Part shown: piece by piece, positions 4,254 to 54,115 of the stretch
How the letters are laid out: the number at the start of each line of letters is the position of its first letter
Numbering within the stretch: position 1 is the first letter of the stretch
Assembly (NCBI RefSeq): GCF_021083645.1
Contig: NZ_JAJNRQ010000004.1
Coordinates: 1 to 64,000, forward strand
Source of the DNA: Schaalia sp. lx-260
GTDB lineage: Bacteria > Actinomycetota > Actinomycetes > Actinomycetales > Actinomycetaceae
Reading direction: 5' to 3'
Length of the DNA: 64,000 bases
Program-made: the position numbers and the translations under genes
The notes under the pieces: model-generated
Told to the model about the DNA's origin: nothing
What the model saw: only the letters and a program-made list of their open reading frames with translations
Databases searched by the model: none

Positions 4254-4283
4254 AAGTTACCCCCCCCCCAACCGATCCTACAA
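4254..4283 (-). promoter_or_regulatory. Predicted promoter of SHIRT adhesin with 10-G tract
   Basis: On the coding strand a run of ten G (complement of 4260-4269) lies 66-75 bp before the adhesin start. Two readings are possible. In one, TTGTAG (4278-4283), an 18-bp spacer containing the tract and TAACTT (4254-4259) form a weak -35/-10 pair. In the other, the better -10 TATCAT (4237-4242) has the G run at its -35 position. In both, a change in tract length would alter the promoter. The similar position in the MucBP adhesin promoter supports function. Confidence 0.55.
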
Positions 4284-29530: not shown

Positions 29531-30229
29531 ATGACTTCTTCACCGCGCCCGCTAGCAGAACTTATTGATTCCGGTTGGGCTCAGGCTTTAGCGCCTGTTG
29601 AACCTCTCATCCATGATCTTGGCATTATGCTGCGTCAAGAAATAGCTGCAGGACGCGGTTACCTTCCCGCAGGTACAGATGTTTTACGTGCTTTTACTTT
29701 CCCATTTGACCAGGTCAAAGTTTTGATTGTGGGTCAAGATCCGTATCCCACGCCGGGTCATGCTATGGGGTTAAGTTTTTCTGTCACTCCAGGAACGCCT
29801 CTGCCGAAATCTTTAATCAATATTTTCACTGAATTACAGCAGGATTTGGGGGTGCCTGCGCCTTCCAGTGGTGATTTATCACCGTGGTGTCACCAAGGGG
29901 TGTGTTTACTCAACCGTGTTCTTACAGTTCAGCCGGGACAACCTGCTTCACACCGTGGTCGAGGGTGGGAAGAAGTCACTTCACGCGCAATCGACGCATT
30001 GGTGGCGCGTACAGATGAGGCTGGCCGTCCTGTTCCGCTGGTGGCAATCTTGTGGGGACGCGACGCACAATCGTTGAAATCTCAGCTTGGCGCTATTCCC
30101 ACTATTGAATCAGCTCATCCGTCACCTTTGTCGGCTTATCGAGGTTTTTTTGGGTCACGACCTTTTAGCCGCGTCAATGAGCTGCTTCAGCAGCAGGGCG
30201 CCTCCCCTATTCACTGGCAGTTGCCGTAA
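29531..30229 (+). CDS. ung: Uracil-DNA glycosylase
   Basis: This 232-residue family 1 enzyme removes uracil from DNA. The catalytic water-activating Asp70 lies in [18 protein letters not shown], and the His loop reads [18 protein letters not shown]. The stop codon lies inside the left 37-bp direct repeat bounding the island. The protein end matches the family, so the insertion did not damage it. Confidence 0.95.
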
Positions 30230-30253
30230 AAACTGTGGCTTATAAAAACGAGA
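30217..30253 (+). repeat. Island boundary direct repeat, left (att-like)
   Basis: The repeat begins GCAGTTGCCGTAAAAACTG. It is identical to 41006-41042 except at one base (C at 30249 versus T at 41038). It covers the last codons and stop of ung. Confidence 0.85.
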
Positions 30254-30517
30254 TACTTTCTCGACAATTTGGATACAAGGAAACGCCCTGTTGAGCCCGC
30301 TCTTTAAGCCGCTTTTCGCTTGATAATGGGGGAAATGATACTCGGTTCGCCTGCCGCGAGTCGGTGGTTCCGGCCACTTCACAGTGACTCGATGGCGCCT
30401 GATGTGATGAGACGAACCCAACGATCCAGTTGGGCAGGTGGGTCACTGGCTGCGTTTCGGGGTTACTTTTGCGCTGAGTACATGTTTGCCAGCACAAAAT
30501 AACTTCCGGGCCTTAAT
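30254..30517. other. Left island edge, no gene seen
   Basis: This stretch of about 265 bp lies between the repeat and the small membrane gene. No promoter, terminator or coding sequence could be supported; it may be remnant DNA. Confidence 0.4.
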
Positions 30518-30673
30518 CTACTTTGGCCAAGCAAGCCAAATAGTACAAGCGAAGCTTAAAACCCCAGCCAGTAAAGCAAAAAGCCAGAGTTTGTTTTCTT
30601 TAGCCTTTAATGCACCTAAAAGAATCAAGGTCACTCCTACGATGGCAGAAAGCACCATGACTGCAAAACCCAT
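30518..30673 (-). CDS. 51-residue two-helix membrane peptide of the bacteriocin operon
   Basis: The ATG at 30673 shares one base with the TGA of the ATPase gene (TGATG) and has AAGGA six bases upstream, so it is translationally coupled. The product starts MGFAVMVLSAIVGVTLILLG, has a charged turn (KAKENK), a second helix (LWLFALLAGVLSF), and ends WLAWPK. As the last gene of the cluster it could be the immunity protein or a transporter accessory subunit. No family was recognised. Confidence 0.75.
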   Translation of the reverse strand: MGFAVMVLSAIVGVTLILLGALKAKENKLWLFALLAGVLSFACTIWLAWPK

Positions 30674-31341
30674 CAGATTTCCTTTCGTTGAAGTGTAATG
30701 ACACGATCATGCTGTTGAGCAACGTAAAGATCATGAGTAACCGTAATAATGGTCGCCCCATTTTCTTCATTAAGTTTGAAAATTAATTCCATTATTCTGT
30801 CTTGATTTTCAACGTCTAGGGAAGCAGTAGGCTCGTCAGCAAGAACAAGTTCTGGATTCATCACGATTGCCCGCGCGAATACAGCTCTCGCTTTCTCACC
30901 GCCTGAACAATCCAATGGTTTCTTTCCGAGAATTGAGTTGATCCTTAGAGCAGTTACTACTTCATCAAATCGCTCGGATAAATGCCGCTTAGATTCTCTG
31001 GCATAAAGGAAAGGTAATTTGATGTTGTCCGCTAAACTCAGTGAGTTTATGAGTGCTGATTCCTGCAGCACGAAACCAATTTTTTGGTTCCGCGCAGCCG
31101 CCAATTCTCGATCAGAAAGCCCCGCTACAAATCTGCTTGAGAGATGGTAAGTTCCAATATAGTCGCGGTCAATTAAGCCAAGGATGTTTAACAGCGTACT
31201 TTTTCCAGCACCAGACTTCCCTACGATCGCAATTTTTTCCCCTTCTTGGACATTCAATGAAAAATTTTGCAGTAGCGTAACACTTGAAGTGCGCTTTTTG
31301 TATATCTTCTGTTCGATATCTAGATTGATGATTTCGTTCAT
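30673..31341 (-). CDS. ABC transporter ATPase, lactococcin-972-type export
   Basis: This 222-residue ATPase starts at MNEIINLDIEQK. Walker A is VGKSGAGKSTLLN, the signature is DCSGGEKAR, and Walker B is ELVLADEPTASLD, with the switch His in VTHD. It belongs to the MacB/LolD-like group paired with FtsX-type permeases; members next to lactococcin-972-like peptides are treated as bacteriocin exporters. Its ATG overlaps the TGA that would end the intact permease frame, evidence for their original coupling. Confidence 0.88.
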   Translation of the reverse strand: MNEIINLDIEQKIYKKRTSSVTLLQNFSLNVQEGEKIAIVGKSGAGKSTLLNILGLIDRDYIGTYHLSSRFVAGLSDRELAAARNQKIGFVLQESALINSLSLADNIKLPFLYARESKRHLSERFDEVVTALRINSILGKKPLDCSGGEKARAVFARAIVMNPELVLADEPTASLDVENQDRIMELIFKLNEENGATIITVTHDLYVAQQHDRVITLQRKEI

Positions 31342-32567
31342 CACTGCAATACTCCCACTGAGATCGGCACGCGTTTTATACGCCGCATGAGTACTTGGAC
31401 AATAATCAAAGAAAACAGTAAATTGCTTAATAAAGTGACTAGTAATGCGACTCAATCCATCATGATTAAACCGCCAGCAAAACCACAGGTGATAAACAAG
31501 GGATCTTTAGAAATCCAACTCTGATATCGATAGCATGTCGCTACCGCACAAATGCCCGCCAAAGAAATCGACGATAGCATCACATAATAGCCATAGAAAA
31601 TTTTACGAATTCCACGATAACTCAAGCCCACTAACAAATTGATAGTGAAATCTTTTATCATCAATTTCACCGCTACAAGCGAGCTCCAGATGGATACAAG
31701 TACAATAATCGCCAGTAAAATAGCGGCTACGATAAACAAAAACCATAGTGACGAGACAAAATACTCATTATAGAAATCAATGTTTTCTTGTTGACTAAAG
31801 AAATTTAGTTTAATTCCTACCGTCTTGTAAATACAGTCAGCTAATTTGGATATGCCTTCCTTGTTCGTATCTGTCACTACAAGATCCATCAATCCATTAA
31901 TTTTGAATGGAATACCAGCTTGTTTGATAAACGTTTCATTGACAGGTACAACTATCGAAAAATTGTAGTACTGCTTGGAATCAAGAGCATACAGATTAGA
32001 ATGGGCTGAATTCTGTCTAAGTATCCCAGAAACTCTGAACTCAATATTTCGATCTAATACCGGATCATGAACACTAAATTGTGCGCCAACTGGATATTCC
32101 TCAGCTAATCCTTTTCCAACTAAAACCGGTAGCACTGTCTCAGTTTCTAGTGAATATTGAAATGTCAGTCCACTACCATCCACATACTCAAAAGGGTTGA
32201 GATCTGCATACTTTTCATTCATGTATGCCACTGGCACTTTGATGCCGTTACGATTCCTGAGATCAACAATATAACCATCCGTAAATAACCCATACTGGTA
32301 ATTGTTATTCAGACGATCATATACATCCTGCATAGATTGCGCCGCGATGCTGTCGATATCAATATCTGATTTTGGGTCCAAATTAGCAATATAAACGCCC
32401 GCAGAATTTAGCCTGCTTACTTGACTGTATCCCTCGTTGGTAGAAACAATAGTGCGAGTCGTTGAAAACGCAATGTAGTTCGCCATTAACAACAATACAA
32501 GCATAGTCACTGCAACAATAGGTTTCTTGAAAAATATGCGAACTAGAAAAAATCTAAAAACTTTCAT
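31341..32567 (-). pseudogene. FtsX/MacB-like permease interrupted by in-frame TGA
   Basis: From ATG 32567 the frame encodes an N-terminal membrane helix, an extracytoplasmic MacB-like domain of about 230 residues, and helices near the C-terminus. A TGA at 31452-31454 stops it after GGLIMMD. The same frame continues for 36 more sense codons (VALLVTLLSNLLFSLIIVQV, then MRRIKRVPISVGVLQ) and ends in a TGA that overlaps the ATPase ATG. A single TGG to TGA change best explains this. Without the last helix the 371-residue product may be non-functional. It overlaps the upstream membrane gene by four bases. Confidence 0.8.
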
Positions 32568-33013
32568 TTTGCCCTCAGTAATAATGAACTAAGCAAAATA
32601 TAAGTAACTAAAACAGTCGATAAGTAGAAGCAGTTCTTTAGAGAATATGAAAATATATAGAATAAGAAACTACACATGACAAAACAGGCAGTCAGAACTA
32701 CTGAGCATGCAATAGCATATCTTAACCTTATTAACCGCAATCTATCCCCCACGATTATTCTGCATTTCACCTCGTCCTTAGCTTCATTTACGAGCTGATA
32801 ATGGAAAATCATGACAATTGCTGAAAAGGCTAGAATAAATACGACTTGGTGCTCTATTAAAAACCGTAAAAATCTCATCATCACATAGGAGTGATTTGAT
32901 TTATGTTCAACAAAAAGCAGAAAACCTGACAGCGAAAAACATCCAATATACAAAAACCCCAGTTTCAGGAGCCTCATCATTCTTAGCGGAGATTTTGCGA
33001 ATAGGCTTTTCAT
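32564..33013 (-). CDS. Four-helix membrane protein of bacteriocin operon
   Basis: This 149-residue hydrophobic protein has helices at about 15-33, 50-68, 97-115 and 126-145 and a basic N-terminus. Its stop overlaps the permease start by four bases (ATGA). In related clusters a long 'bacteriocin-associated integral membrane protein' occupies this place; here the membrane functions are divided between this gene and the permease. Base composition is AT-rich. Export or immunity is inferred from position. Confidence 0.7.
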   Translation of the reverse strand: MKSLFAKSPLRMMRLLKLGFLYIGCFSLSGFLLFVEHKSNHSYVMMRFLRFLIEHQVVFILAFSAIVMIFHYQLVNEAKDEVKCRIIVGDRLRLIRLRYAIACSVVLTACFVMCSFLFYIFSYSLKNCFYLSTVLVTYILLSSLLLRAK

Positions 33014-33114
33014 AAAGGCAACTCTCGTACCAAAGTTCGATATATGCTTTTAGCTCATGTGTAAGAAGCACTAGACTCGCGCCAAAACAATAAACATGGA
33101 CTATTTAATTGGTT

Positions 33115-33438
33115 CTATTTACTGTGTCCCCAATTGAACTTCGTTGTTTGGTTCCTGCTCCAGTCCCAAAGGTTATCCCAAACGGAACCGGTAACACGGC
33201 CTCGATTTACAGTCTTGTACATTAGAGTTTTTCCGTTACGCGAGTACTTAAACCACGCGTTCTTATAGCCTGAATCAGCATAGTTCCAAGCCGCTCCATT
33301 GTACTTAACTTGCAATACCTCAACCGAAGATGCACCGTTCAGATTGTTCCCAAAGGTAACAGCGTGAGCAGTGCCCGCACCTCCCAAAACTAGAGTTGCA
33401 ACGAGTGCTACGGAAGTAATCTTTTCTTTAAGCTTCAT
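33115..33438 (-). CDS. Secreted lactococcin-972-like bacteriocin precursor
   Basis: This 107-residue precursor has a clear signal peptide (MKLKEKITSVALVATLVLGG, then AGTAHA cleaved near residue 26). The mature 81-residue peptide has no Cys and is rich in Trp, Tyr, Asn and Lys (AAWNYADSGYKNAWFKYSR, WDNLWDWSR). Lactococcin 972 is a Sec-secreted, cysteine-free peptide that blocks septum formation by binding lipid II. Spacing of W-Y and aromatic pairs is similar, but the C-terminal half differs, so the assignment relies partly on the ABC/permease neighbours. AGGAGGTGA precedes the ATG. Confidence 0.6.
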   Translation of the reverse strand: MKLKEKITSVALVATLVLGGAGTAHAVTFGNNLNGASSVEVLQVKYNGAAWNYADSGYKNAWFKYSRNGKTLMYKTVNRGRVTGSVWDNLWDWSRNQTTKFNWGHSK

Positions 33439-33735
33439 TGGTTCACCTCCTTTCCCGTCACCTATGACGCGAATATAGTGCTCCCGCTCGTAAATTAGCG
33501 AGCCTTAGTAAATATATCAAACAAAATTAAAGATTTCAAATAGGTAATCCATTCGCTTCAACTGAAGCTATGTAGGTATAGCAGGGTTCATAATAGGGGA
33601 AATATGTGTCGAGGATGACGTCTGGCAGGGCTGTCGTTAGTGGCATGAAGTGCCCGTGTTGGTGTGGAGTGTAGAAGCGTGGATACACATACCCCAAAAC
33701 CGGCGCGCTAACTTTTCACACGCCGGGATAGTTAG
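33439..33735. other. Intergenic region between defence operon and bacteriocin gene
   Basis: This stretch of about 300 bp is AT-rich near 33495-33545, the likely bacteriocin promoter area, and holds the terminator of the defence operon at its right end. No small gene was recognised. Confidence 0.4.
33695..33726 (-). terminator. Terminator of the methylase-helicase-nuclease operon
   Basis: On the minus strand CCGGCG, a 15-base loop and CGCCGG are followed by TTTT, nine bases after the GIY-YIG gene stop. Confidence 0.7.
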
Positions 33736-34941
33736 TCACTCACTCGCAGTCTGGTTTCCTGTCCATTTGAAGGACTGCGTAACTTCGTCATAGATGAAAT
33801 CTGTGATGTCGCCACTAATGATCATCTGCACGGCTTGGTCGATAACCTGTGCTGGAACGATGAACCATTCAGATGGGTTATAGGATTCACGGTCAGTGTT
33901 GATCTGTGTCATGTCTAAACGTACGTCTGCGAAGACTCGGTGTATAAGATTTTCCAGCCTTGAGGGGCGTACATTGTAGACACGGTAATCTGCAACAATT
34001 TCCACAGGTGCCATCAGATATGTGGGATCGTGTTGCGCGTTGGCAATGCGCTGTTCAACTGTTGTCGTACAAAATCCAATCTTATGCAGGTGCGGTATCC
34101 CTTTAATGGTTGGATCTTGGCTTAAGGATTTGAGTACGTAAATATGTCCAGTTTCAACGTCCGCATCACCCAGTTCTGTCATGTCGATGGTGTGGTTGGC
34201 CGGGGCTATGGCGCGCCCGTTTTGTTCTCCCATGCGGATCGAAAGAGATGTCTTGTACATGGCAGATTCTGTGCCGTTTTCAAAGATGACTCGCAGTCGT
34301 TCTTTAGGGCGCTCACGTCCACCGACGTGTTTGTATTCGACCTCGCCGATTTCCGCGATGAAGAGCATGACGCCACCGAGGATGAAAAACCTTCCTGGTT
34401 TTATTGTGGATACCCCTTTGAAGGGAAGGATGACGGCGTCACCAGCGGCTAGTTCTGCGTGTTTGGCTTTGAACAAGTGCTCAAATTTCTCGAAGTCCTT
34501 GGCTTTTTCTCGTACGGCAATTTCTACGTCATCGAGGTTGCGTTTGACCTCTGGCAGTGAGGAAACGTCGAAGATGTCCTCGTTATTATCGAGCAGATCA
34601 AGCTCGTCCGCTTCAAGCAGATCATCTAGGTTTTCTGGTGCGGCTGGTGGAGCAAGCAGACCGAAGTCATCTAGGTCAGCAACGGCTTCAGCTTTTGCTT
34701 CGTTCGCTCGGAAACCATCGAGTCTAGCGCCGAGCTTTCGTTCGCTGACGTCATGGGTCGTGGAACTGGGAACTCGTCCGCGATCACGGTAGAACTCCGC
34801 GATCTCCATGAAGGCCCGCTCTAAACGATCAGCAGAGGTGATAGGTTGAGGTTTTTCTGGAGCGTCCAGCAAACCCTCAGTGTCACTTTCGAGCAGTTTG
34901 GCAAAGGCTTCTTCAAAAGCATCGTTTCCTTGTTCGCTCAT
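33736..34941 (-). CDS. GIY-YIG nuclease (T5orf172 type) of defence operon
   Basis: This 401-residue protein has an acidic N-terminal third containing a helicase-associated-like segment (ERAFMEIAEFYRDRGRVPSS), a middle beta-rich region, and a C-terminal GIY-YIG domain of the T5orf172/MUG113 group. Visible motifs are GHIYVLKS (265-272), HKIGF with Lys287-Ile288-Gly289 as the YIG equivalent, Arg298, catalytic Glu330 in RLENLIHRVF, and the terminal EWF at 358-360 typical of T5orf172. It is preceded by GGAGGAG and lies five bases after the helicase gene. The likely role is the DNA-cleaving subunit driven by the helicase. Confidence 0.85.
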   Translation of the reverse strand: MSEQGNDAFEEAFAKLLESDTEGLLDAPEKPQPITSADRLERAFMEIAEFYRDRGRVPSSTTHDVSERKLGARLDGFRANEAKAEAVADLDDFGLLAPPAAPENLDDLLEADELDLLDNNEDIFDVSSLPEVKRNLDDVEIAVREKAKDFEKFEHLFKAKHAELAAGDAVILPFKGVSTIKPGRFFILGGVMLFIAEIGEVEYKHVGGRERPKERLRVIFENGTESAMYKTSLSIRMGEQNGRAIAPANHTIDMTELGDADVETGHIYVLKSLSQDPTIKGIPHLHKIGFCTTTVEQRIANAQHDPTYLMAPVEIVADYRVYNVRPSRLENLIHRVFADVRLDMTQINTDRESYNPSEWFIVPAQVIDQAVQMIISGDITDFIYDEVTQSFKWTGNQTASE

Positions 34942-48262: not shown

Positions 48263-51200
48263 TCAGCTATCAATGCGGCGACGTCGCACGATGCTGACAC
48301 ATGCCATTCCGAGCAGCGCAAGGCTCAGGCTGAGTAGTGTCGAGGCTGGTGATACACCTGTCCGAGCCAAAGACTTGCCGCCTTTACCATGAGTGCTTGG
48401 GGCAGGGGGTTCCGGTACGGGTGGTGTTGGCACCTGAGATTCTTCCACCAGCTTGTAGATGTACGTCACGTTAGTGTCGCCTTCTACAATCGTGCCGGTT
48501 TCCTTATCGCCTTCTTTGAGCCTGACCAGCTCGTACTTCTTACCGTTCTTCTCGATGATCTTCCGACGACGATCATTGGTGTCATAGGATTCGCCTACAG
48601 GCTTATCCATTTCGTCGGTGACATCCTCAGCAATCGGATTACCGTTCTCGTCAACGTAGTGAACGATTACGTTACCCGTTGGAACCAACTCGTAGATATA
48701 GGTGACCTCGGTAGTACCTTCAACAACTGTGCCGTTTTCTTTACCGACAGTTCGTTCAGGGATGAGCCTGTACAGCTTACCTTCGGAACGAATCGTACCC
48801 GGCTTGTGATCGTCAGTGTTGTAGGTCGTACCTGTGGAAACCAGAGGCATATCTTCCTCATCCTCAGCAATGGTTTTGCCGTCGGTGTCTTTGTAGTGAA
48901 CGATAACGTTACCTTTGACTTCTTGATAGATGTAGACAACAGTCTGGAAGCCTTCTTTGACCATGCCGGTGGCAGGATCAGAGGATTCAAGGCGACCGTT
49001 TTTATCTACTGGGCCAACGGTGTAGTCGCTGCCAGCGGGCACGATCTTGTAGGTCTTGCCCTCAGGTGTGGTGATTTTCTCCAGACGATTATCAGTCAGG
49101 GTATCGTACTGCTTGCCAATCGGAGCATTCTTTTCATCGACAACTTCACGACTGATCTCATTGCCTTCAGTGTCCTTGTATTGGACGGTGACGAAACCAA
49201 CTGGATCAGCAGGCTGAGGAGCGAGCTTGTACTCGTACGTTACCTCAGTGGTCCCTTCAGTGACGGTGCCTTCTTCCGGTTTACTGTCGGCTTTCAGGCC
49301 CACCAGCTCGTAGAGTGACTTTTCGCCGCTGACTGGATCGGTGTAGACGATCACCTCTGGCTTATGGTCTTTGGTGTCGTAGCCGGTACCAACGTCAGAT
49401 TGTGGAGTGTCGATCACCTTGGCAGAGATAACCTTGCCAGTGCCTTGTTCAACGTAGTTGATGATGACGTCGCCTTGCGGTTTCACCTCACGGTAAATGT
49501 AGGTGACTGTCTGCTCGGTTTCCTTTACTTCACCAACGATCGGATCTGATTCCTTGAGGTGGTTGTTACTATCAACCCCACCTACCTTGTAGGTGCCTGC
49601 TGGAACCAGCTCGTACTTCTTGCCGCCCTTTTCAAGGGTTGCTGGCTTGAGTTCTTCCGTTGTGGCGTTGTAGGAATTACCTACCGGTTGTTCTTGAGCA
49701 GCAAACTTCGGATCAGCAATTTCATTACCGTCAATGTCCTTGTATGTGACCTTGACAGTTCCTTTTATTACTGGCTTTCTCAGCTTGTACACGTAGGTAA
49801 CGGTTTGTTCATTTTCAGTGACTTTACCGGTTATCCCAGCGGAATCAACCTGATGACCGTCCTTATCGACCAAGCCAACAGTGTAATTACCGGCGGCAAC
49901 CAGGTCGTAGGTGTTACCTTCCTTTTCAAGGGTTGCTGGCTTCAAAGTGTCGCCGGTTGCGTTGTAGTCGCTACCAATGGAGGCATCTGTGGCCGCGTTC
50001 TGTGGAGCGTGAATTTCAACGCCTTCCGTGTCCACGTAGGTGACCTTCACGTTGCCTTTGATTTCCTTGTAGACGTAGGTAACGGTCTGATCCTTTTCGG
50101 TCACTTTACCGGTTACCGCAGCGGATTCTTTCTTGTGACCGTTTTCTTCAACGTCACCTACTGCTGGGAAATTACTGGCTTCTGTAACGATCTTGTAGAC
50201 CCTGCCATCGTCACCTGTGATTTTTTCTGGTTTCAAGGTGTCGCTGGTCGAGTTGTATTCGCTACCGATGGAGGCATCTGCAACTACGTCCTGTTTCGGT
50301 TTGATTGGAGTCCCCTCAGTACTGACGTAGGTGACTTCAACTTTGCCTTTGACTTCCTTGTAGACGTAGGTGATGACGGTTGTTCCTTCTTTCACCTTGC
50401 CGTCTTCAGGTCCGTCAGTTCGTGCTGAGACGAGTTCGTACACTTTGCCTTCAGCGGTGGTGATTTTATTTGGCTTGTTATCTGTGGTGTTGTATGCCGC
50501 ACCTACCGAGGAAAGCGGCGTATTCATCACAGCTGCCGGATAATTCTGGTCTGCTGGGTCCGCGGTCTTATCGGCAGAAAGCTCACCGATCGTCAGGGTC
50601 CTCTCGGAACCGTCGAAGGTGCCGGTACCTGGGAGCGGATTGCCTTCAGTGTCGGTGTAGCGAACGATAACGTCGCCTTTCACTTCTTCGTACACGTAGG
50701 TAACGTCAAGAGTGCCTTCAGCTACGGTACCGGTTTCGTTGGCTGGTTTGGAAAGGAAACCAGTGGTGTTTGCCGGATCAGCAGTGGTCAGACGACCTGT
50801 TGCGTCGACAGTGCCAACGCCTGGGAGGTTACCCGCTTGTGCTACGCGCTTGTACACTTTACCGGTCTTGAGGTCGGTAATGGTGGGTTGCTTGTATTCG
50901 GTTGTGTCGTAATCGCTATCGAGTGCAGCGCCTGTGATGGCGGGGACCTCTTTGGCGATCACATTTCCTGCGGTGTCAACGTAGTGGACGACCACGTTAC
51001 CTGTCTTTGCGGGTGTTTCTTTCACCTTGTAGTAGTAGGTGACAACGGTTGTGCCTTCAGCAACTTCACCGTTTGGCATACCAGCGGTGAGTGCTTCAAC
51101 ACGCTCATAAACTTTACCGTCTTTTTCAATGGTGGTTGGCCAGTTATCAGCGGTGTCATATGCTGTGCCGACAGATGAAGTTTCCGTGTTCTTTACTGCT

Positions 51201-53785
51201 GCCGGATAATCAGAATCTTTATCGGTGGTGCTGAGCGTATTGTCAGCCGATACTGTACCGATGGTGAGGGTCCTGTTTGATCCGTCGAATTTACCTACGC
51301 CGCCGCTGAGTGGGTTTCCGTTGTTGTCCATGTAGCGAACAACGACATCGCCTTTCACTTCTTTGTAGACATAGGTGACTTCTGTCAGAGGCTTTCCGAC
51401 GGTACCGGATGGGGCGCCACCGGTAGCAGCGTCTGCACCAATCACGCCGTCTTTAAGGGAGGTTGTGAGGTTGTTGTCCGCGCCTACGGTACCCACAGTG
51501 TAGGTATCAGCTGGGGCGGGGCGGTAAACCTTCTTTTCCTTTGTGATTTTGTCTGACTTTGCTTCAGCAGTGTTGTATGGGGTTGTGTAAGACGCACCCG
51601 TGGTTGCTGTGAAGTCTTCGTTTATTTTGTTACCTTCAGTGTCAACGTAATGAACGATGACATCACCTGTCACCTCTGTATAAACATAGGTGACGACGCG
51701 ATCGCCTGTGACAATGGCACCGTCAGGTGCAGCACCTGTTGGGTCGTTTTGGGCGATGATTTCTTTGATCCGCGAGATGGTGAGGTTGTGTTTTTCGCCG
51801 ACTTCACCTACTGGCTGCGTGCCTTTTTCAACGAGCTTGTAGACTTTCCCGCCAGCGGTGATAGTAGCTGGACGCTTGTTGTCAGCGTCTGCGGTGGTGT
51901 CGTAGGCAGTGTCGATCGCTGCATTAACAGTGTCTTTGACAGGTTCTTTGATCTTATTGCCGTTGATGTCTACATAGTTGATTGTTACGGAGCCTTCAGC
52001 GCGTTCGTACACGTAGGTGACATGGTACGTGCCTTGAAGTACTTGACCTGTGGGGGTGGTGCCGTCGACGGCGTTGGCTGGCTTCAAAGTAGCTGCGTTC
52101 GCGTTGCTTTCTTTTACGGATAGCAAGTTGCTTTGCGCTAGAACGGTACCGAGGTTGTACTCACCTTCAGCAACACGTGTGTAGGTTTTGCCGTCTTTGG
52201 AACCGTTTGTGCCGTCGATTCTGGCGGGACGGTGCTGTGCGATAGTGTCGTAGGGTGAGCACACGTTACCTGCAGCGGCAGGAGTGCTCACGACTTCATC
52301 TTTGATGATGTTGCCGTCAGTATCGACGTAGTGAACAACAATTTCGCCCTGCTTGAGCACCTCAGGATTTCCAGCATTTGCCGGTGAAGCCTTGTATAGG
52401 TTGTTGGCCCCGTATTGCGCATTCCCACTGTTGGTGGGGTTTGGCATATTCAGTTTGTAACCGGTGTCAGATATTGTCGCAGTGGAGTTCTCGTTTGCAT
52501 CCACAATGATGGCTTCATTGTATCCTTGGGCTCCTACATTCGTGCGGCTCCATTCTGTGACGCCACGATCGAAGTTGATGCCAAAGGTACCCATTTTTCC
52601 TTCAGGAACCTTAGAAGGGTTAAGTGTCCCCATGACAATGAAACCGGGTTGCGAGTAGTCACCGACGAATCGAACTGTCGCAGTTCGCTTATCGGCGCTG
52701 ATGCGCTCGATGATGGCATACATATTGTCTGGGGTGACAAAGGCTGTGTGATCCGTTGAGTTACCGGTTTGTGCAGCATTGTTGAGGTCATAGGGCATGT
52801 AGTAAACCGGAAGCTTAGAGCCAACAATGTTGGAGTCAGCCCATGTCCATTGATTCGGGTTGGTTGTCTTCGGAGAAATCGTCGCAACAAAACCTTTGGG
52901 TAGGCCGCCGACTTCACCGTTGAACACGAGGACGCCATCAGAGTTGAAGTCCTTCATAAATTTGCGGTCGTTAATGTCTGTACTGAGCGTACGCGCATCG
53001 TATGAAAAGACATTCATACGAGCATAGGAACCGCTCCCATTGTTTCTGTCTGTGCGGGCGTAGCTCCTACTTGCTCCAACGCCGCTATTCCACGCTGGAA
53101 CGTCGATGTTTTGCTCGGCCTGAGTCACTCCGTTAACCTGCACCAGGAATTTAATGGTTGTGTTCTTGGTATAGGCAATTGACTGCTGCGCATTAGCTAG
53201 AGTCGTCGTGATGTGTATATCTTTTAGGCCTTCAACGTTTTGGTTGAAGGTGATTTTGTATTTGAAGCCTTTGATTACTGGGTTATTGTCAGCAGAGATG
53301 TTAAAGCGTGTAGGATCGTCGGAATCCATTGCGCGGTAGTAATCACTGACATATTCTTCGCGTTCAACTGTTGCAATTGGAATCTGTTCACCGTTGACAT
53401 CCACAGTAACAACGCGAGCGAATTCAATCGGTAGGTTCTGGCTGTAGACGTAAAGCCAGTCTCCAGGATGAATGGCATTCGCACCTTCTCCGGTGAATAC
53501 CATTTCCATTGAGGCAGTTTTTGGCCTATTGACAGTAGGTGGCGTGTTCGTCGCTGTCGTTTCAAACCGCACTGTCGTTGTGGGTGTAATCTCTTTTGGC
53601 TGGTAAGCAGACAGGGGGTTACCTGCCGCGCAGGTCGCAGTAGGATCGCTATCGCTAGAGGCAGCAAATGTAACACTGCTTGCAGGTAGCACTAAAGAAG
53701 CGCCCAACAGCGAAGCTGTGAGCGCTGAAACTACGCCAACTCTAGCCGATCTATGCGAAGTATGGCGAGCTTTTTTGTTAACCAT
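48263..53785 (-). CDS. Giant MucBP-repeat surface adhesin with LARTG anchor
   Basis: This 1840-residue protein starts at MVNKKARHTS because GGAG lies six bases upstream; an ATG 12 bases earlier has no ribosome site. After a signal peptide comes an adhesin-type N-terminal region of about 430 residues. Next are 13 MucBP-like modules, each opening with a strand such as GDVIVHYVDTEGN and closing with VTYVYKEVK. The C-terminus has a Pro linker, LARTG, a hydrophobic helix and an RRRR tail. MucBP modules in lactobacilli and listeriae bind mucin or form stalks. Modules 4 and 6 share an extra insert of about 40 residues (FDGSxRTLTIG), a sign of internal duplication. Expression is probably phase variable through the 12-G promoter tract. 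Mucin binding is inferred, not shown. Confidence 0.92.
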   Translation of the reverse strand: MVNKKARHTSHRSARVGVVSALTASLLGASLVLPASSVTFAASSDSDPTATCAAGNPLSAYQPKEITPTTTVRFETTATNTPPTVNRPKTASMEMVFTGEGANAIHPGDWLYVYSQNLPIEFARVVTVDVNGEQIPIATVEREEYVSDYYRAMDSDDPTRFNISADNNPVIKGFKYKITFNQNVEGLKDIHITTTLANAQQSIAYTKNTTIKFLVQVNGVTQAEQNIDVPAWNSGVGASRSYARTDRNNGSGSYARMNVFSYDARTLSTDINDRKFMKDFNSDGVLVFNGEVGGLPKGFVATISPKTTNPNQWTWADSNIVGSKLPVYYMPYDLNNAAQTGNSTDHTAFVTPDNMYAIIERISADKRTATVRFVGDYSQPGFIVMGTLNPSKVPEGKMGTFGINFDRGVTEWSRTNVGAQGYNEAIIVDANENSTATISDTGYKLNMPNPTNSGNAQYGANNLYKASPANAGNPEVLKQGEIVVHYVDTDGNIIKDEVVSTPAAAGNVCSPYDTIAQHRPARIDGTNGSKDGKTYTRVAEGEYNLGTVLAQSNLLSVKESNANAATLKPANAVDGTTPTGQVLQGTYHVTYVYERAEGSVTINYVDINGNKIKEPVKDTVNAAIDTAYDTTADADNKRPATITAGGKVYKLVEKGTQPVGEVGEKHNLTISRIKEIIAQNDPTGAAPDGAIVTGDRVVTYVYTEVTGDVIVHYVDTEGNKINEDFTATTGASYTTPYNTAEAKSDKITKEKKVYRPAPADTYTVGTVGADNNLTTSLKDGVIGADAATGGAPSGTVGKPLTEVTYVYKEVKGDVVVRYMDNNGNPLSGGVGKFDGSNRTLTIGTVSADNTLSTTDKDSDYPAAVKNTETSSVGTAYDTADNWPTTIEKDGKVYERVEALTAGMPNGEVAEGTTVVTYYYKVKETPAKTGNVVVHYVDTAGNVIAKEVPAITGAALDSDYDTTEYKQPTITDLKTGKVYKRVAQAGNLPGVGTVDATGRLTTADPANTTGFLSKPANETGTVAEGTLDVTYVYEEVKGDVIVRYTDTEGNPLPGTGTFDGSERTLTIGELSADKTADPADQNYPAAVMNTPLSSVGAAYNTTDNKPNKITTAEGKVYELVSARTDGPEDGKVKEGTTVITYVYKEVKGKVEVTYVSTEGTPIKPKQDVVADASIGSEYNSTSDTLKPEKITGDDGRVYKIVTEASNFPAVGDVEENGHKKESAAVTGKVTEKDQTVTYVYKEIKGNVKVTYVDTEGVEIHAPQNAATDASIGSDYNATGDTLKPATLEKEGNTYDLVAAGNYTVGLVDKDGHQVDSAGITGKVTENEQTVTYVYKLRKPVIKGTVKVTYKDIDGNEIADPKFAAQEQPVGNSYNATTEELKPATLEKGGKKYELVPAGTYKVGGVDSNNHLKESDPIVGEVKETEQTVTYIYREVKPQGDVIINYVEQGTGKVISAKVIDTPQSDVGTGYDTKDHKPEVIVYTDPVSGEKSLYELVGLKADSKPEEGTVTEGTTEVTYEYKLAPQPADPVGFVTVQYKDTEGNEISREVVDEKNAPIGKQYDTLTDNRLEKITTPEGKTYKIVPAGSDYTVGPVDKNGRLESSDPATGMVKEGFQTVVYIYQEVKGNVIVHYKDTDGKTIAEDEEDMPLVSTGTTYNTDDHKPGTIRSEGKLYRLIPERTVGKENGTVVEGTTEVTYIYELVPTGNVIVHYVDENGNPIAEDVTDEMDKPVGESYDTNDRRRKIIEKNGKKYELVRLKEGDKETGTIVEGDTNVTYIYKLVEESQVPTPPVPEPPAPSTHGKGGKSLARTGVSPASTLLSLSLALLGMACVSIVRRRRIDS

Positions 53786-53847
53786 TACTTGCTCCATCTA
53801 ACATGTACGTTTTCTGTCTGGGATTCAGCAGAAATACAATATTTGAC

Positions 53848-53877
53848 TCTATAAGAACCACCCCCCCCCCCCGTCAA
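53848..53877 (-). promoter_or_regulatory. Phase-variable promoter of MucBP adhesin (12-G spacer tract)
   Basis: On the coding strand TTGACG (complement of 53872-53877) and TATAGA (complement of 53848-53853) are separated by 18 bp. The spacer has 11 of the 12 consecutive G residues, the twelfth being the last base of the -35. Gain or loss of one G shifts spacer length between 17, 18 and 19 bp, which would change promoter strength. The ATG is 63-76 bp downstream. Such spacer tracts control adhesins and porins in Haemophilus and Neisseria. Confidence 0.75.
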
Positions 53878-54115
53878 ATTTTTTGGGGATTTTGTACAGA
53901 AAAATTCTTTTCTTTCAAGCGGAAAATACTATTCATTGTAAAAATCACATATTTTTATCAAAAGTAATTAAAGAATTATTCATAAATACAAAATATAAAT
54001 ATAAAATACCTGTGCCCCACCAACACTCCATCACACAAATAAACACACAACAGAAAAAACACCCTCACGCACCACAAACGGTGCGTGAGGGTGACGCTAC
54101 ATGCCCTCGCTTGAA
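53878..54115. other. AT-rich region upstream of the MucBP promoter
   Basis: The stretch 53878-54010 is very AT-rich compared with the surroundings and lies directly upstream of the -35, like an UP-element or H-NS/Lsr2-type target. The rest holds the terminator of the next gene. No coding sequence was seen. Confidence 0.5.
54054..54093 (-). terminator. Intrinsic terminator for the 54116-55309 gene
   Basis: A perfect 14-bp stem (CACCCTCACGCACC with its complement) around a six-base loop is followed on the minus strand by TTTTTT. Confidence 0.9.

What the first reader, a model, noticed from the sequence alone, without database searches (positions are those of the whole stretch)
53848..53877. 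12-G tract fills the promoter spacer of the MucBP adhesin
Seen directly: TTGACG, then 12 G (one shared with the -35), then TGGTTC and TATAGA, giving an 18-bp spacer, with the start codon 63-76 bp downstream. A homopolymer of this length in a spacer is prone to slipped-strand change and would move the spacer through 17-19 bp. This is the classic phase-variation design of Haemophilus fimbrial and Neisseria porin promoters, but is not something I know to be described for MucBP adhesins in Actinomycetaceae. The conclusion that expression switches is inference.
Basis: partly seen in the sequence, partly recalled or inferred. Interest (0 to 1): 0.82.

Follow-up and report, generated by a model that had tools for sequence, protein, structure and literature searches.

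The report
G-run switch before surface adhesin
A run of twelve Gs sits inside the likely promoter of a cell-surface adhesin gene, one of many such runs placed before surface genes in this bacterium, which suggests a slippage switch that varies the cell coat; the switching itself has not been measured.

Summary
In detail: twelve C (12 G on the coding strand) at 53861-53872, TTGACG before them and an AT-rich -10-like stretch after, ahead of an 1844-aa MucBP protein with a sortase-type LARTG tail. The spacer is 18 bp if the -10 is TATAGA, or 20 bp if it is TAGAGT, which better fits the TAnnnT form of relatives. A terminator (54093-54060) closes the gene upstream, so the adhesin needs its own promoter here.

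The tract is one of many. The 1.93-Mb genome has 24 G/C runs of 9 or more (about 5 expected) but 3 A/T runs (about 30 expected). Fourteen of the 24 lie just upstream of same-strand genes; 10 of those 11 genes look secreted. TTGAC-G-run-TAnnnT occurs in 18 of 200 family genomes. One such promoter, in two close genomes with 98-99.7% identical flanks, has 8 versus 10 G.

Phase variation by slippage in the promoter spacer is the best explanation. Length change at this very site and any effect on expression are untested. The principle is known, also in Actinobacteria (Cutibacterium, Bifidobacterium, Gardnerella); my searches found no description for Actinomycetaceae.

The parts
53861..53872 (-). 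12-G homopolymer tract (C on the + strand) between the -35-like and -10-like boxes
   Evidence: one of 24 G/C runs of 9 or more in the genome
53872..53877 (-). -35-like box TTGACG, sharing one G with the tract
   Evidence: TTGAC is the box used to find the promoter form in relatives
53848..53853 (-). -10 candidate TATAGA (spacer 18)
   Evidence: sequence; inferred
53846..53851 (-). -10 candidate TAGAGT (spacer 20), fits TAnnnT
   Evidence: inferred
48263..53797 (-). MucBP adhesin gene, 1844 aa, secretion-type N-terminus, LARTG sortase-type tail; likely start at 53785
54060..54093 (-). intrinsic terminator of the gene upstream, separating it from the adhesin
4260..4269 (-). 10-G tract upstream of the other tract-bearing surface gene of the window (SHIRT/MucBP protein, 1415+ aa, running off the contig start)
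4402..4411 (-). second 10-G tract upstream of the same gene

Best explanation
A transcriptional contingency locus. The G tract fills the spacer of the adhesin's own promoter. Replication slippage adds or removes G residues, which changes the distance and helical phase between -35 and -10 and so how well RNA polymerase starts the gene. A clonal population would then hold cells with different amounts of this MucBP adhesin. About a dozen surface-protein genes of this genome carry the same kind of tract, so their combinations would diversify the cell coat. Shown: the tract, its place, the surface-protein target, the genome-wide enrichment, and length differences in related promoters. Inferred: slippage at this tract, use of this promoter, the effect on expression, and which length is the active one.
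For: Tract and boxes; terminator between the upstream gene and the adhesin. 24 G/C runs of 9 or more against about 4.9 expected, and 3 A/T runs against about 30. 14 of 24 lie within about 210 bp upstream of same-strand genes; 10 of those 11 genes have secretion-type N-termini, 7 show sortase-type tails. Promoter score summed over all 24 tracts is 173 against 154.2 (sd 4.6), 0 of 500 shuffles. TTGAC-G8-TAnnnT in 18 of 200 family genomes against 2 hits of the reversed pattern; 10 of 21 sites precede sortase- or pilin-type proteins. Two genomes with flanks 295/301 and 299/300 identical have 8 and 10 G. Orthologs of a 195-aa gene carry G13, G9, G8, G10 or a C9 run at the spacer in 5 of 10 genomes. 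Spacers at 21 family sites run from 14 to 22.
Against: No read data, no second strain and no relative of this adhesin, so no length change is shown at this site. Start site and expression unknown; a weak upstream promoter could put the tract in the leader. Draft assemblies can miscount homopolymers, which also touches the 8 versus 10 comparison. 5 of 10 genomes with the 195-aa gene have no run. 4 of 13 sortase-type ORFs in the stretches examined have no run, and 6 of 9 anchor-profile matches in the genome are away from G/C runs. In Cutibacterium acnes such tracts follow clades, which its authors read as slow accumulation rather than active switching (PMC4746626, passages).
Confidence: 0.74

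Rival explanations
1. The tract lies in the transcribed leader of an upstream promoter (TTGAAA-18-CAAAAT ending at 53889). Its length would act on mRNA structure, stability or translation, not on a promoter spacer.
For: The strict scan lists that upstream site and not the tract-spanning one. Other runs of this genome, such as L049, lie at or past a possible start codon, so not every run fits a spacer.
Against: The upstream site is at chance level (2 sites found, shuffle mean 1.2). Box scores round the tracts beat all 500 shuffles together, and TTGAC-run-TAnnnT recurs in the family above its control.
Confidence: 0.13
2. The run is an ordinary, stable part of the promoter: a spacer or a binding site for a regulator that recognises G runs, without switching.
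For: Runs recur on the coding strand before surface genes. C. acnes tracts look slow-changing (PMC4746626).
Against: Run length differs between near-identical promoters (8 and 10 G) and spacers scatter from 14 to 22. An ortholog has a C run in the same place, which a G-run reader would not recognise in the same orientation.
Confidence: 0.1
3. Chance or assembly artefact: a long run without function.
For: 2 of 24 runs face no gene and one is in a phage portal gene. Numbers of G9 matches vary from 0 to 744 among 35 genomes of the genus.
Against: G/C runs are about fivefold in excess while A/T runs are about tenfold depleted. The window has no G/C run of 7-9 but three of 10-12. Placement and box scores exceed shuffles.
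Confidence: 0.03

Closest known systems
Neisseria meningitidis opc promoter poly-C switch (PMC6389960, passages; porA poly-G recalled, no call)
   Same: Homopolymer in the promoter of a surface adhesin-type protein; 11C to 12C or 14C shifts were seen in 5 of 17 clones there
   Different: Gram-negative; length change and expression were measured there, not here; the target here is a sortase-type MucBP protein
Bifidobacterium breve G-tract pilus switch (PMC9187656, abstract and passages)
   Same: G-tract slippage governing sortase-dependent surface structures in an actinobacterium; the authors also mention tracts within promoter spacers
   Different: The tracts studied there are inside coding sequence; this one is upstream. 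The interrupted pilin gene of this genome (L032:15706) resembles it more
Gardnerella homopolymer tracts (PMC11287997, passages)
   Same: About 70% of G/C tracts of 8 or more lie upstream of ORFs, many for surface proteins with GA, FIVAR, Rib or LPXTG features; one tract shown to vary in length
   Different: Another family; promoter boxes round the tracts are not analysed in the passages I saw
Cutibacterium acnes homopolymeric tracts, HPT_37 (PMC4746626, passages)
   Same: A C run between -10 and -35 whose length goes with a twofold expression difference; 96% of variable tracts are G/C
   Different: Tract of only 5-7; lengths follow clades; that gene is metabolic

Membership tests
Homopolymer promoter-spacer contingency locus (opc/porA type) | Homopolymer long enough to slip (9 or more), beyond chance | tested here: met
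   12 G
Homopolymer promoter-spacer contingency locus (opc/porA type) | Tract lies between -35 and -10 of the gene's promoter | tested here: inconclusive
   Boxes present (5 of 500 shuffles reach the score), -10 ambiguous, start site not mapped, rival site upstream
Homopolymer promoter-spacer contingency locus (opc/porA type) | Tract length differs between close relatives with conserved flanks | tested here: inconclusive
   Met for the promoter of another gene of the same form (8 versus 10 G); no second copy of this locus was found
Homopolymer promoter-spacer contingency locus (opc/porA type) | Expression depends on tract length, reversibly | not testable with these tools
   Needs reads and expression data
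Homopolymer promoter-spacer contingency locus (opc/porA type) | Target is a surface-exposed product | tested here: met
   MucBP repeats and LARTG tail; exposure itself inferred
Intragenic G-tract frame switch (B. breve pilus type) | Tract inside the coding sequence | tested here: not met
   Tract ends 63 bp upstream of the longest ORF start
Sortase-anchored MucBP adhesin | MucBP repeats plus C-terminal sortase signal | tested here: met
   Nine MucBP stretches; LARTG, hydrophobic stretch, RRRR. Mucus binding not tested

The most novel reading that the evidence does not exclude
Actinomycetaceae carry a recurrent class of promoters in which a G (or C) run separates TTGAC from TAnnnT. Through it they phase-vary a large part of their sortase-anchored surface, together with a conserved 195-aa non-secreted protein whose promoter keeps a run in four genera. 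In this species about a dozen surface genes switch independently, giving a combinatorial coat.
Probability: 0.5. Interest if true: 0.72.

Novelty: new member of a known kind. Interest (0 to 1): 0.58.

Why it matters
If right, cultures of these bacteria are mixtures of cells with different surfaces, which would affect adhesion, immune recognition and the meaning of any single reference genome. It gives a defined, testable list of switching genes in a family for which my library searches listed no paper on such switches; the library lacks most subscription journals, and one search showed 20 of its 54 papers.

Tried and rejected
Relatives of the adhesin itself: none in the other 37 genomes; none by tblastn among 43 pattern matches of one genome-contig scan; plasmid hits are distant Firmicute MucBP proteins at 33.1% identity or less (8 records). 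So no orthologous promoter could be compared. Synteny: one search kept 80 aldolase loci; I compared 33 of them (L050-L082) and none matched the adhesin within the bases held (at most 10 kb each side; L062, L066, L072 and L076 hold less). It looks lineage-specific.

Chance was rejected. A G-specific binding site is less likely because one ortholog has a C run in its place. The C-run promoter form matched 8 of 200 family genomes, 11 rows, against 2 control hits; three rows are one repeated sequence in one genome, so I lean only on the ortholog.

Single-tract tests are weak: of 24 tracts only 4 (window 53861, L035, L041, L046) fall below p = 0.05 alone; the sum is the evidence. The other minus-strand promoter-like site is kept as a rival. 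An inverted repeat ATTTGAC/GTCAAAT flanks this promoter; I saw no consistent match in relatives by eye and did not test it. The promoter form is not family-specific: 12 of 273 genomes of the order outside the family have it, against 2 control hits. G/C runs are not the only ones: 2 of the 3 A/T runs also lie upstream of surface-type genes.

Full report
Observation. The minus strand of the window reads TTGAC, 12 G (53872-53861), TGGTTCTTATAGAGT, and the MucBP ORF begins 63 bp further on, with a better-placed ATG 76 bp on. The spacer is 18 with TATAGA and 20 with TAGAGT; the second has the A and T of TAnnnT. The gene upstream on the same strand ends in an intrinsic terminator at 54093-54060, so the adhesin should have a promoter of its own in the roughly 260 bases between. 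The strict promoter scan does not list this promoter and lists a weak one upstream at chance level.

Target. The protein has 1844 residues, a secretion-type N-terminus (by eye), nine MucBP stretches (Pfam E 1.8e-80) and the tail LARTG-hydrophobic-RRRR. It has no relative at E 0.001 in the other 37 genomes searched, and none beside the aldolase gene in 33 loci examined of 80 fetched. The nearest named aldolase neighbours are Schaalia- and Actinomyces-type Actinomycetaceae; the species itself is not named.

Genome-wide setting. The genome (1,925,904 bases, 12 contigs) has 24 separate G/C runs of nine or more: 9 of length 9, 8 of 10, 4 of 11, 2 of 12, 1 of 13 (my collapse of the 50 rows; 24 recounted). 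From neighbour frequencies in the window about 4.9 are expected, while about 30 A/T runs are expected and 3 are found. My reading of the 24 places: 14 lie within about 210 bp upstream of a same-strand gene (11 genes, three with two runs each; in one, L049, the run lies between two possible start codons); 3 lie about 260-500 bp upstream of a same-strand gene (proline dehydrogenase, an M16-type peptidase named from its motif by recall, a lactococcin-972 bacteriocin), the first two in divergent gaps where the run is about as near or nearer to an opposite-strand ORF; 4 are in coding sequence with G on the sense strand (pilin, sialidase, Eco57I-type methylase, phage portal), plus 1 probable (L032:6279); 2 face no gene (L033, L048). 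Of the 11 genes, 10 have secretion-type N-termini by eye. Sortase-type tails are seen in 7 (LARTG, LAETG, LATTG, LAKTG, LASTG, LAHTG, LSHTG) and 3 are cut by contig ends. The eleventh is a 195-aa protein without a signal peptide.

Results against. Of 13 sortase-type ORFs in the 314 kb examined, 4 carry no run of six or more near their start. That sample was chosen round the runs, so no genome-wide fraction follows. A search of the whole genome with the anchor profile gave 9 matches, 2 over the cut-off; 3 of the 9 are genes with a G/C run and 6 are not. One of those 6 has an 11-A run upstream, and another A/T run adjoins the G run of L043.

Promoter boxes. Scoring a TTGACA-like box before and a TAnnnT box after the run at 15-20 bp, the 24 tracts sum to 173 against 154.2 (sd 4.6) for flank shuffles, none of 500 reaching it. 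Four tracts alone fall below 0.05, the window's at 0.010. TA follows the run directly in 10 of 24, against 1.6 expected and at most 7 in 2000 draws.

Family. The pattern TTGAC-N0-14-G8-N0-9-TAnnnT occurs in 18 of 200 genomes of the family (23 rows, 21 distinct sites), against 2 hits of the reversed pattern. Of the 21 sites, 10 precede sortase-type or pilin-type proteins (read by eye), 5 precede the 195-aa family (one copy frameshifted), and 6 precede other or unclear genes, one of them in a 73% GC stretch and probably chance. In the order, 12 of 273 genomes outside the family have it, against 2 control hits. One of these, G464, has four near-identical such promoters with runs of 10, 10, 10 and 9; for two of the four I saw the surface-type protein downstream. 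With C in place of G, 8 of 200 family genomes match, against 2 control hits.

Length change. In genomes G100 and G181 the promoter of the 195-aa gene has 8 and 10 G, while 300 bases on each side align at 295/301 and 299/300. Of 200 family genomes, 10 hold the gene by protein search; 5 of these carry a run at the spacer (G13, G9, G8, G10, C9; four genera) and 5 carry none. An eleventh, decayed copy with a 10-G run was found by pattern only (L141). Spacers over the 21 family sites, taking the first TAnnnT after the run, range from 14 to 22, mean 17.2, sd 2.4. Such scatter is what slippage would leave; a fixed spacer would not show it.

Mechanism. Most likely the run slips in replication, changes the -35 to -10 distance and so sets the adhesin's transcription in each cell. 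The promoter, slippage at this site and the effect on expression are inferred. I cannot say whether the sequenced 12-G allele is an active or an inactive form.

Known kinds. Poly-C in the opc promoter of meningococcus is the closest model (PMC6389960, passages). In Actinobacteria, Cutibacterium acnes has a C run placed between -10 and -35 with a twofold expression difference, but its authors read tract lengths as clade-bound and slow-changing (PMC4746626, passages). Bifidobacterium breve switches pili by intragenic G tracts, and its authors mention tracts in promoter spacers (PMC9187656, abstract and passages). Gardnerella has many G/C tracts upstream of surface-protein ORFs (PMC11287997, passages). 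Searches pairing phase variation, poly-G, homopolymeric or slipped-strand with Actinomyces, Schaalia, Trueperella, Arcanobacterium or Mobiluncus listed no paper on such switches in this family (listings only, 20 of 54 seen). I therefore file the locus as a new member of a known kind; the genome- and family-wide set is the more interesting part.

Noticed in passing
L032:15373-17969 (G000:C4, about 135370-137970): A SpaA/GramPos_pilinD1-type pilin gene with LPKTG tail is interrupted at a 9-G tract, with a sortase gene next to it; resembles the B. breve intragenic pilus switch.
   Followed up: partly
L040:4092-7796 (G000:C6, about 30090-33800): A LARTG-tailed protein with sialidase-type BNR repeats has a 9-G tract inside its open frame.
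   Followed up: no
L036:5885-10107 (G000:C4, about 466885-471107): An Eco57I-type DNA methylase has a 9-G tract inside its open frame and is followed by a ResIII-domain gene; a possible phase-variable modification system.
   Followed up: no
L038:6485-9228 (G000:C5, about 372485-375230): An 11-G tract lies about 500 bp upstream of a lactococcin-972-type bacteriocin gene and a following membrane-protein gene.
   Followed up: no
L039:1-2682 and L047:6375-9110 (contig ends of C6 and C7): Two related secreted-protein genes at contig ends each have two G tracts about 110 bp apart (12 and 10; 9 and 10), in alignable flanks.
   Followed up: partly
L179-L182 (genome G464, same order, another family): Four near-identical TTGAC-G-run-TATGTT promoters in one genome with runs of 10, 9, 10 and 10.
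   Followed up: partly
L035:6502-7086 and orthologs L169, L170, L174, L175: A 195-aa protein family of unknown function (no Pfam match) keeps a G or C run at its promoter spacer in four genera.
   Followed up: partly
L034:607-617 (G000:C4:238606-238616): An 11-A run, one of only three A/T runs of 9 or more in the genome, lies just upstream of a 1293-aa frame with a weak anchor-profile match.
   Followed up: partly
window 53844-53879: An inverted repeat ATTTGAC...GTCAAAT brackets the promoter, overlapping the -35 and lying just past the -10; perhaps an operator, perhaps chance.
   Followed up: no
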